Origin: Candidatus Jettenia caeni
GTDB lineage: Bacteria > Planctomycetota > Brocadiia > Brocadiales > Brocadiaceae
DNA: 64,000 bases
Reading direction: 5' to 3'
NCBI GenBank assembly: GCA_000296795.1
Contig: BAFH01000003.1
Location: 930,401-994,400, forward strand
Every line of letters begins with the position of its first letter. Within the stretch, counting starts at the first letter, position 1. The position numbers and the translations under genes are program-made. Positions 47,221 through 53,986 of the stretch are shown here, piece after piece. The notes beneath the pieces are model-generated. The model did not search any database, was not told the origin of the DNA, and saw only the letters and a list, made by a program, of their open reading frames with translations.

Positions 47221-48168
47221 ATGAGAAACAAATATTTTTGTTCTTTGTTGGCGACGGTCTTATTTTTATTGGGTGGTATATCGGGTATAAACCTGAATAC
47301 CTATGGTAATTCAATTATCAAAAATATACAACCAGTAGCTAATGCCGCGGTAGGTGCGTTGGTAAAGGTTGATGATATTGTAACTCTTAATGGCATTGGA
47401 AGTACTGACGGGGATAGTGATTTTCTTATGTATACCTGGACACTTTCCTCTTTTCCAGAGGGGAGTCTATCGGTAATAGCAAATCCAAAGGCTGCGATAA
47501 CTACCTTTATTCCAGATAAAGCCGGGACTTATGAAGTAACGTTGATTGTAAACGATGGCCATGTGAACAGCAACCCCAGTATAATTAAGGTAAAAGTAGT
47601 AACGCCACAGGAAGAGGTGATACTCCTTGTAAAGAGTCTCCAAAGTCAGATTATAACCTTTAATCCGGAAGTATTTAAAATTCCTACCATGCAGAAAGAA
47701 TTCTTAAATGAATTTGATATCATAATAAAAAATATTGAAATAGGTGATTATAAGAATGCCTTAAATAAGTTAGAAAATAACATCTTACCTAAAATAGATG
47801 GTTGTAAAGTATTTGGGTTACCAGACGAGAATGATTGGATTATTGATTGTGAAGTGCAGAAATCAGTATATGAAGCTACTGAAGAATTAAATGATAAAAT
47901 TTTATACATAGTCTGGGCACCGGGAGGTATAACAGGATTTGTATATATGTCTGGGACAAAAACAGGCATTTATAAGGCAAAAGTTACTATAACGAAAGGC
48001 ACGTTTACTGGCCGCTATGATGAGACAAACTCAAGTGGTAAATACGAATTAACATCATTACCGCCCAATACATACAGCCTCAAGGCAACAGCCCCTGGTC
48101 GCAACGTAAAATATGGAACTGCAACGGTATATTCCGGTAAATACACAATTCTAAATTTTTCTTTATAA
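47221..48168 (+). CDS. Secreted PKD-like/carboxypeptidase-regulatory domain protein
   Basis: The 315-residue protein has a signal sequence (residues 5-28), a PKD/Ig-like domain (about 37-130: DDIVTLNGIGSTDGDSDFLM, PDKAGTYEVTLIVNDGH), a helical linker (140-200) and a C-terminal beta-sandwich (about 235-315: GTFTGRYDETNSSGKYELTS, LPPNTYSLKATAPG) like CarboxypepD_reg. Such domains are surface or cell-envelope adhesins or scaffolds. GGGAGGG precedes the start. Terminator follows at 48303-48340. Confidence 0.65.
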   Translation: MRNKYFCSLLATVLFLLGGISGINLNTYGNSIIKNIQPVANAAVGALVKVDDIVTLNGIGSTDGDSDFLMYTWTLSSFPEGSLSVIANPKAAITTFIPDKAGTYEVTLIVNDGHVNSNPSIIKVKVVTPQEEVILLVKSLQSQIITFNPEVFKIPTMQKEFLNEFDIIIKNIEIGDYKNALNKLENNILPKIDGCKVFGLPDENDWIIDCEVQKSVYEATEELNDKILYIVWAPGGITGFVYMSGTKTGIYKAKVTITKGTFTGRYDETNSSGKYELTSLPPNTYSLKATAPGRNVKYGTATVYSGKYTILNFSL

Positions 48169-48302: not shown

Positions 48303-48340
48303 AAAAAAGCCCATGATGGTAAACATCATGGGCTTTTTTT
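48303..48340. terminator. Bidirectional rho-independent terminator
   Basis: GCCCATGATG (48309-48318) pairs with CATCATGGGC (48324-48333) around GTAAA. It is flanked by A6 on the left and T7 on the right, so it can end both the PKD gene (+) and the HAO-like operon (-). Confidence 0.92.
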
Positions 48341-48372: not shown

Positions 48373-49986
48373 CTATTTCATAGCAGCTTTTTCGATACCA
48401 GCCTCTCTTCGTAAACGGGCAGCCTCTGCCTGTATTTTGGTAAACTCCATCATCATAGGTGCTTGACCCCACCACCAGGAAACGTCCTGCTGGGCGTGTG
48501 CTGTTCCCTTGTAACCCTGCAGTTTGTACCAGAACCATAACCTGTTGTACATATTCTCGATGGTGGATGGATTATCTTGTTGTTGTAAGAACATACCATA
48601 AACACCGAGAATAGGACCAACTACAGGGAACTTACCTTTCAGAGTCTTAAAGGCATTGTAAACAGGCTCGCCAAGGAATGCCGGACTGAGCATCTTTTCA
48701 ATTCCATCGCTCAATGGGTATGGGTCCCTTTTTGAAGCATCGGGATATAAGACCCCATCAGCAATTAAGTCTTCGACTACCTTCTGTGCCTGATCTGCTA
48801 AAGTATGTGCCTGGAACATAAATTGATCTAATGATTTTAAATAGGTATCAGCAAACCGGTCGCTATGGCACTTTGCACAGACTTCTAACCAATACGATCT
48901 CTTCGCAATATTTTCTTCTGAATAGATATCGATTTTATCACCGATGATCTTAATTCCATATGGGTAATCTTTCAAGGAAGAGGTATATTCTATATTCTTT
49001 GGCGGTATTGTACCCATACGCCAGATACCTTTCATGACCGGGTTATGAATAAACCGTCCATGTTTCTCATACATATGGCAGTACTGGCATGTTGGAGTGC
49101 GATAATCCTTGCCAGGCCTTACTTCAGATAACGGTCTGGTAAAATCGAAGTGTTCTTCTTCCTGATGGTAAATTACACCATGCTTTGATTCACCATAAGA
49201 TTCTGCATCCGGATGGTCCGGACCCATGTGGCAGGTGATACAGGCTTCCGGCTGTCTGCCTTCAGCAGCGCTGAACTTATGCCTGGTATGACATACGTCA
49301 CATTTTTCTGCGCCGGAGTGGCACATATCACAACCATGCTGTCCGTAGAGGTAACCCCTTCGTGCAGCCTCTGCATACCATGGTACAATGGTGTTTGCTT
49401 CCCATGATTGAACGTGGTTAGGACGGCCTACTTCCCGTTCTCTCACGAAATCATCAAACTGTTTTCTATGACATTCTCCGCATACTTCTCCTGTTGGCAT
49501 TCTGATTTGTTTCTTTTTTGTATCGGCATGGCAATCAAAACAGTGAACCTCATCTAAAATCCTGCCTGTGTTCTTCTCGATTTCTGCTGTTCTGCTGGAA
49601 AGATAGGGGGTACTTTTAGGATTTTTATGTCCCGATTCTCTCCAATCTCTCACGACACCAGGTGTTGCCTCCTCATGGCATGTTACACACAAGTCTCTTC
49701 TTTCTTTTTCAATAAAGATAGCGTGATCAAAATTTTCCATTGGTACATAGTGCCTGTTAGGTTGCCAGTACATATCCAGCATCTGTGGCTTGAAATAGTC
49801 CTTAAACGGACCAGAGCCTTCGTTCATGCCAACATTATCTTTATACGTGGCCCTATACCAATCGGGCAGTCCTTCATATAAATCTGGTGGTGTGTCCTTC
49901 TTGGGGGGAGTCTGGTCAGCAGCCCACGCCAGAGAAGTAAACGCCAATGTTGCAGACAAACATATGCCTAACCCTAATTTTTTCAT
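48373..49986 (-). CDS. Octaheme cytochrome c of the hydroxylamine oxidoreductase family
   Basis: The 537-residue product has a signal peptide (ends LAWAA) and eight CxxCH motifs, first cysteines at residues 100, 149, 169, 219, 229, 249, 300 and 370. This is the HAO spacing, with heme 4 (the P460 position) at CDMCH. The catalytic Asp-His pair is kept as GPDH (residues 255-258). Near the C-terminus the P460-tyrosine region appears as DVSWWWG (501-507), so the cross-linking Tyr may be missing; that needs an alignment. Anammox bacteria have about ten HAO paralogues; those without the Tyr are thought to reduce nitrite. It follows a diheme cytochrome gene by 33 bp, like the kustc0457/0458 pair of Kuenenia. 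Confidence 0.92.
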   Translation of the reverse strand: MKKLGLGICLSATLAFTSLAWAADQTPPKKDTPPDLYEGLPDWYRATYKDNVGMNEGSGPFKDYFKPQMLDMYWQPNRHYVPMENFDHAIFIEKERRDLCVTCHEEATPGVVRDWRESGHKNPKSTPYLSSRTAEIEKNTGRILDEVHCFDCHADTKKKQIRMPTGEVCGECHRKQFDDFVREREVGRPNHVQSWEANTIVPWYAEAARRGYLYGQHGCDMCHSGAEKCDVCHTRHKFSAAEGRQPEACITCHMGPDHPDAESYGESKHGVIYHQEEEHFDFTRPLSEVRPGKDYRTPTCQYCHMYEKHGRFIHNPVMKGIWRMGTIPPKNIEYTSSLKDYPYGIKIIGDKIDIYSEENIAKRSYWLEVCAKCHSDRFADTYLKSLDQFMFQAHTLADQAQKVVEDLIADGVLYPDASKRDPYPLSDGIEKMLSPAFLGEPVYNAFKTLKGKFPVVGPILGVYGMFLQQQDNPSTIENMYNRLWFWYKLQGYKGTAHAQQDVSWWWGQAPMMMEFTKIQAEAARLRREAGIEKAAMK

Positions 49987-50019
49987 CTCTTTACCTCCCT
50001 ATGATCAACATATTAAATG

Positions 50020-50817
50020 TTATTTACATTCTTTATTTTTATGATTTTCCTCTGGTTTTACGAGTGACATTACGTAGTGGGTTAAATACCACCTTTGTTC
50101 GTCTGTAAGCTCCTTGGCAAAAGATGGCATAGGAGTGCCATTCAATCCGGTAGTAAATCTGAGATATATATCTGTGGATGAATTTCCACCCTTGAATTTT
50201 CCCGTAGTAAAATCAAAAGGTTTTATGGGAAATCCAAAATCATCCTCTTGTTCTGCTGCGCTGGGGCCATCACCACGCCCTTCAACACCATGACACTTCC
50301 AGCATTCTAACTTTTCCTCATAAATCTTTTTTCCCTCTGCAATAGTCCTTTCTGTCGGCCTTACCTCTAATCCGACATTCACAGGTGCATCTGGTTGTCT
50401 GAATTCAAATGCCTCTGAGAAACTCTTTAAAACCGGAATTACTGAGGCACGCTCTTCTTCAGATAAAATATCCCAGGGGATCATCGTCGAATTCGGTACT
50501 CCAAAGGAAATCGTTCTATAGATATCATTATCTGTAGGGAGTGAACCGCTGGGGGTTGTTCTAAATTTATAAGCTCCTCGGGTAAAATCACGTGGTTTTG
50601 GAAGCATGGATCTTGCCAAAGGTCCATCCCCATGCCCTTCTTCACCGTGACAGGCGCTACAATATTTCTTGTAGGTATTTTTACCCAATTCTGTGACCTC
50701 TGTTGGTATAGTAACTGCTTTAGCAGTAGTCGGTGCAATATTTAGCGCCAGCGCTATACTTGCCACTGCCGTAGTGCTCCATAAGCCAACCTTATCCAAT
50801 AAAACCTTAGGTCTCAT
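50020..50817 (-). CDS. Diheme class I-type cytochrome c
   Basis: The 265-residue protein has an N-terminal signal/anchor (WSTTAVASIALALNIAPTTA) and two cytochrome c domains, each with CxxCH (CSACHGEEGHGDG and CWKCHGVEGRGDG) and a later Met-containing segment (PNSTMIPW; LNGTPMPSF). It is likely the electron partner of the octaheme protein encoded next on the same strand. Both hemes are probably His/Met-ligated. The C-terminus ends in a Lys-rich tail (NHKNKECK). Confidence 0.9.
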   Translation of the reverse strand: MRPKVLLDKVGLWSTTAVASIALALNIAPTTAKAVTIPTEVTELGKNTYKKYCSACHGEEGHGDGPLARSMLPKPRDFTRGAYKFRTTPSGSLPTDNDIYRTISFGVPNSTMIPWDILSEEERASVIPVLKSFSEAFEFRQPDAPVNVGLEVRPTERTIAEGKKIYEEKLECWKCHGVEGRGDGPSAAEQEDDFGFPIKPFDFTTGKFKGGNSSTDIYLRFTTGLNGTPMPSFAKELTDEQRWYLTHYVMSLVKPEENHKNKECK

Positions 50818-50902
50818 ATCTGCCCTCCTCCTTTCGATTGCATTTTACAAACCTAACTATAAATGTAACTATTTTTAACTATTACAACTCTTTACCACAT
50901 TT

Positions 50903-51640
50903 CTAATCCTGAGAATACATCAACTCTATGTTTGTAATTTCTTTGGGTTTAACCGTTACCTCCTTCTCTAGATTTCCTAACTCCTCATGCCACACTCTTA
51001 ATTTGTATATTCCGGGGGGGATGTCACAAATCTCAAAATATCCATGTTTATCTGTTATATCAAAATAGGGATTATCCAGGATGATAATCCATGCATACGA
51101 ACTCCTGTGAATATCACAAGATAATTTAATAACCTCGGAATGATCAAATCTCTTTGATATTCTCTGCTTATACGTTGTGCCAAGATTAAAGGGTTGGTTT
51201 TTAACCGATCGGGTATGTACCGTATGGAGTTCTTCATCCCCGTTTAAGATGTCTACGGTAGTTCCTTCTAAAATCGCAGTTACACGAGGGATGAAGGTAT
51301 TTTTCTGTTGATCTATAATCGGATGAATAGCTGGTATTTCTTTCTTCTTACCTTCTGTAATATCGGTAATTGAGATAACCGCATTTTTGAGGCCGCTATT
51401 GACCTTGTTTACGACAAGTTTTTCAGAAACAGTTTTGGAGACATCAGGTAGTTCCCAGCCACCTTGCAGGTTTAATGATTGCGCTGCCAAATCACCCTCA
51501 TATTTCACATTTCCCTCAATGGTGCCACCATCTACAACTTCTGTTTCGGTATAACTCTTACCGGCTACTATATCTTTTGAAGATATAATATTCCAACTTA
51601 AGAGTCCAAGTAAAACGCTAAAAGAAAGTAATTGTCTCAT
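50903..51640 (-). CDS. Secreted cupredoxin-like protein with carboxypeptidase-regulatory C-terminus
   Basis: The 245-residue protein has an N-terminal hydrophobic segment (LSFSVLLGLLSWNII), a cupredoxin-like middle (EELHTVHTRSVKNQPFNLGT; KLSCDIHRSS) with His, Cys and His in the usual order, and a C-terminal beta domain (DKHGYFEICDIPPGIYKLRV then WHEELG). The usual 'CxxHxxM' is CDIHRSSYAW, so the axial Met is absent and the copper site may be altered. It is upstream of the diheme/HAO-like genes by 85 bp, same strand. Membership in this redox operon is inferred from spacing. Confidence 0.65.
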   Translation of the reverse strand: MRQLLSFSVLLGLLSWNIISSKDIVAGKSYTETEVVDGGTIEGNVKYEGDLAAQSLNLQGGWELPDVSKTVSEKLVVNKVNSGLKNAVISITDITEGKKKEIPAIHPIIDQQKNTFIPRVTAILEGTTVDILNGDEELHTVHTRSVKNQPFNLGTTYKQRISKRFDHSEVIKLSCDIHRSSYAWIIILDNPYFDITDKHGYFEICDIPPGIYKLRVWHEELGNLEKEVTVKPKEITNIELMYSQD

Positions 51641-51853: not shown

Positions 51854-53986
51854 TTATTTACCAAAAAGTAAGATTCGAAGATCCCGTTGTAATGGACTAT
51901 CTGTTACGGTAAAGGTTCCTTTATCGATATTTTTTCCGTCAGCAAAGATAAGATAGCTATACTTTCCGTAGCGCGGAATCTTTAAGCCTAAGGTATCAAT
52001 CGTAGCAGAATTGAAAGTGAGGAACAAGGCAATACCTTTTTTTCTGTTTTGGGGGTTTCTCAAGGTTACCAGAAGTGCGTTACCTTTATTATTAAAGGTT
52101 GTACTGTTTACGGTAAAAGCATTTTCTTCAAGCAAGAAATTTTCTGGCAAATCTCCTAAAAGCATCTTTGTTAGCTTATTCTCGGATAACCCTCCCAAAA
52201 TGAACAAACTTTTTTGAGTTATTTCTGTTTCTGTGACTTCTGTATCCGCTTTTACCATTCCTTCGTTATCTGCTATCGATTCTGCTAGTTTTTTATAAGC
52301 CTTCTGCGAAGCGCTTTCACCACCTGTTGGGTATACAATAACCTTCTCATAATCTCCCAGTACTAAATCTATGGTGGGAGGAATTTCTCCAGGATGTAAA
52401 CGCCGGAATACGTCATGCTGAGGGTCTATAGCAATATATTTAGGTTGAGATTTTGTTTGTATGGAAAAGGTATTCGATGTTTCTTTTAGTTCTACAGTTG
52501 TAGAAAAATTTCCATCTTCCAATTCCAGAATGACCGGTATGGAGAGGCGGTATGGTGTATCTTTTTGCAAGATCTCTGCCTTTACCAACCAGCCGTCACT
52601 AACCTTCTCTACCTCTGTTTTACCCAATTCAATAAAAGGCGCTCCTTTCCGGTTGACCCATTGTTCAAAAAACCAGGACAGATCTGTCTTGCCGATATCT
52701 TCAAACGTATGCTGGATATCTTTCCAACTGGCCTGCTGCCAGATCTTGTTTTTATAAAAATTCCTCAAGGCTGTATAAAACAACTCGTCACCGACCATGC
52801 GTCTTAACATATGGAATACCATTGCTGTCTTTCCGTATCCGACAGACTGGGTTATCGGGTCTATTCTACCGGTAAATTTTGATAACGGGAGATCATTCTG
52901 TTCGGTTACATAATTGGTGTATTTTCTGCAAATATCCTTGCGATATTCCGTCGCTGAATTACTATCCTTGAGTTCTTTATAATAATAATCTGCCATATAG
53001 GTAGTCAGTCCCTCACACCAGTTTCCTTGTGACTCATCTACAAAGACAGAGTTGCCCCACCAGTTATGCAGAATCTCGTGACCAAGCGAAGTATCTACAA
53101 TAAAGGGTAATTTTACAACGGTACTGCCCAGGAGAGTAAACGATGGCATACCATATCCGGTTTGAAAAAAATTTTCGACGATAGCAAACTTTCTATATGG
53201 GTAATTTCCCAAAAGTTTTTGATACATATCCAGATAGCGTATGGTAGCATCCAGGTATGTTTTTGCTAAATCTTGCTCTTCAGGGAAGAAAAAGGCATAA
53301 ATATCGATGCCGTTATGGCTTATACTCGTTACCTGATATTTTCCTGCTACAAGATCGCATCCCTCGGATACGTTTTTTTCTTCCCATGTTGTATACGTCT
53401 TATGGTCATCTGATGTTTTGCTTATCAGCGTGCCCTGGGTTATCGCCTCATATCCTATAGGGGTAATGATCGTTATCTTAAAGGTTGCCAGAGAAGAAGG
53501 TATATCAGGATACCAGATGCACGCAGGACTCAGATAAACCCCTCTCTCGCTGATAGTACCCGTTGTCTCGCCGACATCTTCCTCTTCCAGTGAAACAGGT
53601 GTTGCAGTGAGAGACCCCTCATACACAATGTCTAAAGTTAATTCATTACGTTCCCTTAAGTCGGATGGTATGGATATCTCCAGGCATTGCGGCCCTTTAT
53701 CAGGCGTATTTCTTATATGAAAATCTAATGTTCTCTTTGAAGTACTGACTGATAAGATTTGGAATGACCGATTCATAAAACACAAAACCTTCTCATCATG
53801 TTCATAAGGTATACTCATATGATCGATGGCCTTTAGCTTGTGATCTTTCAAAAAGAGCTCGATTTCTATGGTATGGTTCACAATCTTGCTTTTATGGATT
53901 GCTTCTGCATTTACCGGGAGCATGGTTATGGGTATCGTAAAATAAACAAAAAGCAATATATTTTTCGCCGATCTTAGATTAAACAT
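51854..53986 (-). CDS. M1 family metallopeptidase
   Basis: This 710-residue secreted protein (signal near residues 8-26) has an N-terminal beta domain, the thermolysin-like catalytic motif HEILHNWWGN around residue 301, ENFFQTGYGMP upstream in place of the usual G-x-M-E-N exopeptidase motif, and EGLTTYMADYY downstream with the third zinc ligand Glu. The C-terminal half has further beta and alpha parts. Aminopeptidase activity is expected; the altered GxMEN loop makes specificity uncertain. No operon partner. Confidence 0.83.
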   Translation of the reverse strand: MFNLRSAKNILLFVYFTIPITMLPVNAEAIHKSKIVNHTIEIELFLKDHKLKAIDHMSIPYEHDEKVLCFMNRSFQILSVSTSKRTLDFHIRNTPDKGPQCLEISIPSDLRERNELTLDIVYEGSLTATPVSLEEEDVGETTGTISERGVYLSPACIWYPDIPSSLATFKITIITPIGYEAITQGTLISKTSDDHKTYTTWEEKNVSEGCDLVAGKYQVTSISHNGIDIYAFFFPEEQDLAKTYLDATIRYLDMYQKLLGNYPYRKFAIVENFFQTGYGMPSFTLLGSTVVKLPFIVDTSLGHEILHNWWGNSVFVDESQGNWCEGLTTYMADYYYKELKDSNSATEYRKDICRKYTNYVTEQNDLPLSKFTGRIDPITQSVGYGKTAMVFHMLRRMVGDELFYTALRNFYKNKIWQQASWKDIQHTFEDIGKTDLSWFFEQWVNRKGAPFIELGKTEVEKVSDGWLVKAEILQKDTPYRLSIPVILELEDGNFSTTVELKETSNTFSIQTKSQPKYIAIDPQHDVFRRLHPGEIPPTIDLVLGDYEKVIVYPTGGESASQKAYKKLAESIADNEGMVKADTEVTETEITQKSLFILGGLSENKLTKMLLGDLPENFLLEENAFTVNSTTFNNKGNALLVTLRNPQNRKKGIALFLTFNSATIDTLGLKIPRYGKYSYLIFADGKNIDKGTFTVTDSPLQRDLRILLFGK

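What the first reader, a model, noticed from the sequence alone, without database searches (positions are those of the whole stretch)
48373..51640. HAO-like octaheme protein with diheme and cupredoxin partners; P460 tyrosine may be missing
The HAO-like protein has all eight hemes and the Asp-His pair but reads DVSWWWG in the C-terminal region where the cross-linking Tyr is expected. The adjacent diheme gene makes a kustc0457/0458-like pair. A cupredoxin-like gene with a lost axial Met (CDIHRSSYAW) is 85 bp upstream in the same direction, a less usual third member. If the Tyr is absent this is probably a nitrite reductase to NO rather than an oxidase.
Basis: partly seen in the sequence, partly recalled or inferred. 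Interest (0 to 1): 0.6.

Follow-up and report, generated by a model that had tools for sequence, protein, structure and literature searches.

The report
Anammox nitrite reductase with odd cupredoxin
These three neighbouring genes of an ammonium-oxidising (anammox) bacterium encode a known nitrite-reducing haem enzyme, its known electron-carrying partner, and a third, little-studied copper-type protein that in this bacterial family lacks the usual fourth copper-holding residue, which makes it a testable candidate for the enzyme's unknown electron donor.

Summary
The octahaem and dihaem proteins are full-length counterparts of the two chains of PDB 6h5l (kustc0458/kustc0457, "HAOr" and its partner). 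The cross-linking Tyr is absent: all 31 HAOr-type rows aligned read Trp there, while seven of eight other paralogue rows carry Tyr in or beside that column. The pair is known; in print it is an NO-forming nitrite reductase whose physiological weight is disputed.

The third gene is not unusual. It sits upstream of the pair in 26 of 27 HAOr-bearing genomes of the window's family, and kustc0456 is already called a type-1 blue-copper cupredoxin. New here: 29 of 29 HAOr-linked copies of this family lack the axial Met (Ser 12, Ala 9, Thr 6, gap 2) but keep both His and the Cys; 52 of 52 other homologues keep Met. The loss maps to the family's stem; its sister copy, also HAOr-linked, in another family of the order still has Met. 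Best reading: an amicyanin-type cupredoxin with an open or three-coordinate copper site, probably redox partner of HAOr. Copper, fold and partnership are inferred; both structure predictions failed.

The parts
48373..49986 (-). HAOr: octahaem HAO-like protein without the cross-linking Tyr (kustc0458/HAO2 orthologue)
   Evidence: 1110.7 bits to PDB 6h5l_A over residues 20-535; eight CxxCH
48466..48486 (-). codons of DVSWWWG (residues 501-507): column of the P460 Tyr, occupied by Trp
   Evidence: alignment of 45 HAO-like rows; HMMER pairing with N. europaea HAO puts W506 opposite a Tyr of it, but in a weak second domain (-2.6 bits)
49213..49218 (-). codons of the catalytic-type Asp257-His258 pair
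   Evidence: aligned with the Asp-His of HAO
50020..50817 (-). DH: dihaem cytochrome c partner (kustc0457 orthologue)
   Evidence: 448.8 bits to 6h5l_B; two Cytochrom_C stretches
50903..51640 (-). CUP: exported cupredoxin-like protein with a C-terminal carboxypeptidase-regulatory-like domain (position of kustc0456)
   Evidence: family profile matches 5fc9, NirK and amicyanin; C-terminal domain by Pfam, below cut-off; signal-peptide-like N terminus (read from the sequence, no predictor run)
51224..51226 (-). codon of His139, first equatorial copper-ligand column
   Evidence: 81 of 81 family members have His; aligned with the His of amicyanin's HNVH
51098..51118 (-). ligand loop: Cys175, His178 and Ser181 (axial Met column)
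   Evidence: Cys and His 81 of 81; Met 0 of 29 in HAOr-linked copies of the family, 52 of 52 in the others
48303..48339 (-). terminator-like hairpin (16 pairs, T tail) after HAOr, end of the gene set
   Evidence: scan, (5 sites found, 3.5 expected in shuffles, so the scan alone is weak; this is the longest stem)
51854..53986 (-). M1-type peptidase, next gene upstream in the same direction; neighbour, role unclear
   Evidence: Pfam; beside CUP in 20 of the 22 loci with enough DNA: 20 of 21, absent in L125

Best explanation
The three genes form one functional unit around HAOr, the reductive octahaem protein of anammox bacteria. HAOr lacks the Tyr cross-link, so its active-site haem is tuned to reduce rather than oxidise; with its dihaem subunit it reduces nitrite to NO, which feeds hydrazine synthesis. 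The third protein, CUP, is an exported cupredoxin of the amicyanin ligand-loop type (Cys-X2-His-X2-Met), followed by a small C-terminal beta domain. In the window's family its axial Met was lost once while Cys and both His stayed invariant, which predicts a three-coordinate or water/open type-1 copper of high potential. Most likely it hands single electrons to the dihaem subunit of HAOr, at a potential close to the nitrite/NO couple. Shown: gene identity, gene order, missing Tyr, ligand pattern, single loss on the tree. Inferred: copper binding, high potential, electron transfer to HAOr, the reaction itself.
For: HAOr and DH match the two chains of one crystal structure. The Tyr column holds Trp in 31 of 31 HAOr-type rows. 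CUP-DH-HAOr order in 26 of 27 HAOr-bearing genomes of the family, the 27th split between two contigs, with spacings of 76-94 and 30-43 nt in the 15 loci measured, and also in the one genome of family f5 (L106). Ligand tally of 81 distinct homologues: His, Cys, His 81 of 81; Met 0 of 29 against 52 of 52. Tree: the 28 HAOr-linked rows kept form one branch (SH-aLRT 100), sister to the f5 copy upstream of DH (97). Residue pairing with amicyanin and with 5fc9, whose printed row also lacks Met. In print kustc0456 and kustc0457 both fell under hydrazine, and the donor of anammox nitrite reductases is called unknown.
Against: CUP itself matches no cupredoxin model or structure, nor does the profile of HAOr-linked copies alone; cupredoxin membership rests on the Met-bearing relatives. 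Both AlphaFold runs failed (mean pLDDT 43.4 and 42.5). Family f4 (Scalindua-type) has HAOr-DH pairs without CUP beside them, so CUP is not needed for the pair as such. CUP, DH and HAOr are all acidic, with no charge complementarity. CUP evolves faster than its partners (55-74% against 80-90% and 83-91% identity outside the genus). HAOr's role as a nitrite reductase is disputed. A promoter-like site lies between CUP and DH, but such sites occur at chance frequency here.
Confidence: 0.55

Rival explanations
1. CUP is not a plain electron carrier: its open copper site binds NO or nitrite directly, oxidising, buffering or sensing NO made by HAOr, as the purple cupredoxin of Nitrosopumilus maritimus can oxidise NO.
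For: The best cupredoxin match of the family profile is 5fc9, whose row lacks Met at the same place; that it is Nmar1307 is recalled. A passage read says Nmar_1307 is capable of oxidising NO to nitrite. The axial residue is small (Ser/Ala/Thr) in 27 of 29, which would leave room for an outside ligand.
Against: No structure or spectrum; a Tyr next to the lost Met (27 of 29) could fill the site; in the two Kuenenia-type copies the loop is one residue shorter and Tyr may stand in the Met position.
Confidence: 0.15
2. CUP has lost copper and serves as a structural, anchoring or assembly factor for HAOr-DH.
For: Axial Met and the N-terminal CG cysteine (0 of 28 rows with sequence there, against 38 of 52 in the others) are gone; the stem branch is long (0.82); C-terminal regulatory-like domain.
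Against: The three equatorial ligands are invariant in 29 of 29 copies although identity to the window protein falls to 55%, not expected of a dead site.
Confidence: 0.2
3. HAOr-DH is not chiefly a nitrite reductase; NO is made by NirK, HOX or the NIR/HAO fusion, and HAOr-DH-CUP does another reduction.
For: HAOr fractions without discernible activity in Kuenenia CSTR1; a NirK-like gene and a NIR/HAO-type fusion in this genome.
Against: HAOr abundance tracked NO formation, r = 0.99, in another strain; strong down-regulation of both genes when NO replaces nitrite.
Confidence: 0.25
4. A P460-type oxidase (hydroxylamine or hydrazine oxidation).
For: Octahaem family membership, eight haems.
Against: No Tyr at the cross-link column; the orthologue 6h5l is reported to lack the cross-link (recalled); the NCBIfam HDH model scores 127 against a cut-off of 900.
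Confidence: 0.02

Closest known systems
KsHAOr/KsDH complex of Kuenenia stuttgartiensis (kustc0458/kustc0457, HAO2; PDB 6h5l)
   Same: Full-length match of both proteins, same Trp-rich motif in the 6h5l row
   Different: Nothing of note; orthologue in Jettenia
[quoted passage not shown]
   Same: Gene linked to kustc0457/0458; presumably the orthologue
Amicyanin
   Same: Family-profile match and the same Cys-X2-His-X2-(Met) loop and HNVH motif
   Different: No Met in CUP; extra N-terminal stretch and C-terminal domain
5fc9 blue type-1 copper domain protein (recalled as Nmar1307, purple cupredoxin with an open site)
   Same: Best cupredoxin match of the family profile, also without Met at that place
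   Different: 95-residue single domain; Arg in the printed row instead of Ser/Ala/Thr
NIR/HAO fusion, encapsulin cargo (PMC6934571, passages)
   Same: Tyr-less HAO domain related to HAOr, with copper domains
   Different: Multicopper-oxidase domains fused in one chain, no separate CUP

Membership tests
HAOr (reductive octahaem HAO of anammox) | eight CxxCH haem motifs | tested here: met
HAOr (reductive octahaem HAO of anammox) | orthology to kustc0458 | tested here: met
   1110.7 bits to 6h5l_A, next best 177.8
HAOr (reductive octahaem HAO of anammox) | no Tyr at the P460 cross-link position | tested here: met
   Trp in that column; by HMMER pairing also Trp (weak)
HAOr (reductive octahaem HAO of anammox) | nitrite to NO activity, alpha6beta6 complex, no 460-nm band | not testable with these tools
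   needs protein
P460 HAO / hydrazine dehydrogenase (oxidative) | cross-linking Tyr | tested here: not met
KsDH-type dihaem partner | two haem-binding cytochrome c stretches and orthology to kustc0457 | tested here: met
Type-1 (blue) cupredoxin | two His and one Cys ligand in the right spacing | tested here: met
Type-1 (blue) cupredoxin | axial Met | tested here: not met
   Met is not universal among type-1 sites (recalled: laccases, stellacyanin), so this makes it an atypical type-1 site, not a canonical blue one
Type-1 (blue) cupredoxin | sequence-profile match to solved cupredoxins | tested here: inconclusive
   family profile yes; window protein alone and HAOr-linked profile no
Type-1 (blue) cupredoxin | cupredoxin beta-sandwich fold | tested here: inconclusive
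   predictions failed
Type-1 (blue) cupredoxin | bound copper with a thiolate charge-transfer band | not testable with these tools
   needs protein
NIR/HAO fusion (encapsulin cargo) | copper domains and HAO in one chain | tested here: not met
   three separate ORFs

The most novel reading that the evidence does not exclude
CUP is an open-site type-1 copper protein that works on nitrogen oxides itself: it binds or oxidises NO (or gates nitrite) at the exit of HAOr, linking the NO-forming reductase with nitrite oxidation. Met-bearing relatives of CUP sit in the nitrite-oxidoreductase cluster (directly after nxrA, and before a cytochrome-bd-like gene), and in family f5 the HAOr unit directly adjoins such a module, so one copper-protein family may carry electrons between nitrite oxidation and nitrite reduction.
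Probability: 0.12. Interest if true: 0.7.

Novelty: new variant of a known kind. Interest (0 to 1): 0.42.

Why it matters
A 2025 paper states that the physiological electron donor of anammox nitrite reductases is unknown (passage). A conserved, exported, copper-type protein encoded directly with the enzyme, whose site was altered once at the root of the family, is a concrete candidate that can be expressed and tested. It would also give a natural set of type-1 copper sites with Ser, Ala or Thr in the axial place.

Tried and rejected
AlphaFold of CUP, full length (A1) and cropped (A3), gave mean pLDDT 43.4 and 42.5; no fold search was run on such models. Charge complementarity between CUP and its partners: none. 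Promoter scan: 12 sites against 12.6 expected, no information. Considered and rejected: CUP as the tubule protein NXR-T (that is a monohaem cytochrome, kustd1705; passages). Considered: that the axial Met is merely misaligned; rejected because the Cys-X2-His spacing is the same in all 81 rows but L106:3725 (one residue more), and only the two Kuenenia-type rows have a shorter stretch after the His. The pattern listing mistook an N-terminal C-x-H for the ligand loop in many rows; one search replaced it by alignment columns. Rows dropped: 26 of 108 homologous stretches were contained in longer ones and left out, leaving 82; two of these are stretches of one ORF with the same name (L114), so tallied 81. 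In one search, rows under 190 aa outside four kept loci were left out (79 in the tree; one HAOr-linked row, L009, among those left out). One search's match list was cut by the tool, so counts of paralogues are lower bounds. In one search the frame of L041 gave no row.

Genome G031 (one contig, 4,406,153 bases, Kuenenia-type) has no HAOr, CUP or M1-peptidase orthologue at the thresholds used; the flank just after HAOr is there, but upstream of it lie transposase-like and other unrelated ORFs, without any N. Its size is close to that of strain MBR1 (4,406,132), for which print lists a kustc0458 counterpart (passages). I could not resolve this contradiction.
Full report
What is there. Three genes on the - strand, in transcription order CUP (50903-51640), DH (50020-50817) and HAOr (48373-49986), with gaps of 85 and 33 nt, ending in a terminator-like hairpin at 48339-48303. 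The genome is a Jettenia: the best named relative of HAOr is Candidatus Jettenia ecosi at 98%. The genome held as G000 has 4.09 Mb in four contigs; that it is strain KSU-1 is only a guess. 'The family' below means the group coded f1 by the genome tool, to which named Jettenia, Brocadia, Kuenenia and Loosdrechtia loci belong by their matches (Brocadiaceae in the titles of several).

HAOr and DH. The octahaem protein matches 6h5l_A with 1110.7 bits over residues 20-535, the dihaem protein 6h5l_B with 448.8 bits. That 6h5l is the KsHAOr-KsDH complex of Dietl and others (2019) is recalled; I could not read that paper, nor Ferousi and others (2021). I aligned 45 HAO-like rows: the window, 11 frames of this genome found by its Pfam search (one of these is the window gene again), 20 named relatives, and 13 further rows (other genomes' HAOr, fusion proteins, and one repeat of an own-genome gene). 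31 rows are HAOr-type (84-100% identity to the window within the family, 57-61% outside it) and read D[VIL][SM]WWWGQ; the four fusion rows and the two rows of the kuste4574-type gene read DISWW[LWY]G or DLSWWWG; of the remaining eight, seven carry a Tyr in or beside that column (FTYIS, ATYGK, PIYGY, QTYGN, ATYSD twice, YTYLY) and one (L038) has a gap. So no Tyr stands in the window's column. Passages of PMC12758564 say that HAOr and HAO3 are reductive forms without it. This part is already known.

Function in print. Passages read: HAOr abundance correlates with NO formation in fractions of Kuenenia MBR1, r = 0.99, and the physiological donor is unknown (PMC12485887). HAOr fractions of strain CSTR1 showed no discernible activity (PMC11897245). 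kustc0457 and kustc0458 fell 39- and 28-fold by Table 1 when NO replaced nitrite (PMC6423088). This genome has a NirK-like gene at C4:1051607-1052512, 232 bits against a cut-off of 296; Jettenia caeni is reported to encode NirK. So HAOr may be one of several NO sources.

The third gene is a fixed part. Of 33 genomes of the family searched, 27 have a HAOr at 84% identity or more; in 26 of these CUP lies 0.9-1.0 kb upstream on the same contig and strand, and in the last, G041, the HAOr match starts 542 bases from its contig's start and CUP is on another contig. I made this count by hand from the two listings. In the named loci, 21 of 23 reach past DH and all 21 carry CUP. In family f5 (one genome) the order is CUP-DH-HAOr-CUP, then a cytochrome-bd-like gene and cytochromes (L106). 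In family f4 (Scalindua-type by inference) 15 genomes have a HAOr of about 60% identity, and none of the listed CUP matches lies within 5 kb of it (hand count; the CUP list was cut); four loci read with flanking DNA (L112, L118, L120, L124) show none. [quoted passage not shown] A search for kustc0455/0456/0459 found that one paper; searches for anammox with cupredoxin or blue copper (15 of 167 papers listed) and for HAOr with cupredoxin listed none whose title or opening abstract deals with this protein's copper site. The library holds open-licence papers only, and Kartal 2013 was not seen.

What is new: the ligand pattern. I gathered homologues of CUP from all loci held at that time and tallied alignment columns for 81 distinct ones. 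The His of the HN/HT motif, the Cys and the His of the CxxH loop are present in 81 of 81. The axial Met is present in 52 of 52 homologues outside the HAOr-linked group of the family and in 0 of 29 inside it: Ser 12, Ala 9, Thr 6, gap 2. The gaps are the two Kuenenia-type rows (CDIHKEYAW), where Tyr could stand in the Met place. A second Cys (in a CG motif of the N-terminal part) is found in 38 of 52 others and in none of the 28 group members with sequence there. Tyr follows the lost Met in 27 of 29. On a tree of 79 rows the 28 group members form one branch with SH-aLRT 100; the f5 copy upstream of DH, which has Met, is their sister with 97 (quick method, no bootstrap; the trait's own column was not left out). 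So the unit seems older than the loss, and the loss happened once on the stem of the family, followed by variation of that residue while the equatorial ligands stayed fixed.

Is it a cupredoxin? By itself the window protein matches only carboxypeptidase-regulatory-like models, below cut-off, and no relevant structure. A profile of the group alone finds no cupredoxin. A profile of the family of 30 sequences does: 5fc9 at 2e-7, NirK 9cck at 7.6e-7 and amicyanin entries near 1e-4; cropped to the domain (14 of the 30 sequences), 3.1e-7, 1.5e-6 and 3e-4, with His, Cys and His paired to amicyanin's. Pfam Copper-bind is hit by 9 of 30 members and Cupredoxin_1 by 3; the window protein hits neither. 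In the printed alignment 5fc9 has Arg where the family has Met. From memory, 5fc9 is Nmar1307, a purple cupredoxin with water at an open site and a potential of about +0.35 V, and amicyanin with Ala for its Met still binds copper; from a passage read, Nmar_1307 can oxidise NO to nitrite (PMC6790972).

Most likely working. CUP is exported, holds copper in a Cys-His-His plane, and passes electrons to DH-HAOr. Losing Met should raise the potential toward the nitrite/NO couple (about +0.38 V, recalled). A source of high-potential electrons is the nitrite oxidoreductase (nitrite/nitrate +420 mV in PMC8387239, passage). Two Met-bearing relatives of CUP lie in this genome's NXR cluster: one directly after nxrA (L107:7098-7820; nxrA identified with 2404.7 bits to 7b04_B) and one before a cytochrome-bd-like gene (L108:6345-7112). 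This fits a copper-protein family moving electrons between nitrite oxidation and nitrite reduction, but no step of it was tested. Against: all three proteins are acidic, family f4 manages without a neighbouring CUP, and the fold could not be predicted.

Verdict. Known enzyme, known pair, known third gene; a new and clean observation on the third gene's copper site. Interest moderate, because it turns the unknown electron donor into a testable candidate.

Noticed in passing
L107:7098-7820 and L108:6345-7112 (own genome, NXR cluster): Two Met-bearing relatives of CUP: one directly after nxrA, one before a cytochrome-bd-subunit-I-like gene followed by three cytochrome c genes.
   Followed up: partly
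L106:3725-14348 (family f5, genome G061): HAOr unit with a CUP copy on each side, directly followed by a cytochrome-bd-like gene, further cytochromes and a third CUP copy.
   Followed up: partly
L160:6893-9400 (own genome C4): 836-aa fusion of multicopper-oxidase domains with a Tyr-less octahaem HAO domain (DISWWLG); the known encapsulin cargo type.
   Followed up: partly
L172 (genome G031, C1:4212500-4232400): A one-contig Kuenenia-type genome without HAOr, CUP and the M1 peptidase; transposase-like ORFs stand upstream of the conserved downstream flank, at odds with print if this is strain MBR1.
   Followed up: partly
window 51854-53986: M1-type peptidase gene upstream of CUP in the same direction, kept in 20 of 22 loci with enough DNA.
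   Followed up: no
L009:3983-4740: CUP of Brocadia carolinensis is split over two overlapping frames: frameshift, assembly error or decaying gene.
   Followed up: no
CUP family alignment, N-terminal part: Many relatives of CUP carry a CG(H) motif in the N-terminal part that the HAOr-linked copies of the family lack; possibly a second metal site.
   Followed up: no
window 47221-48168: Convergent + strand gene with PKD and carboxypeptidase-regulatory-like domains just beyond the terminator.
   Followed up: no
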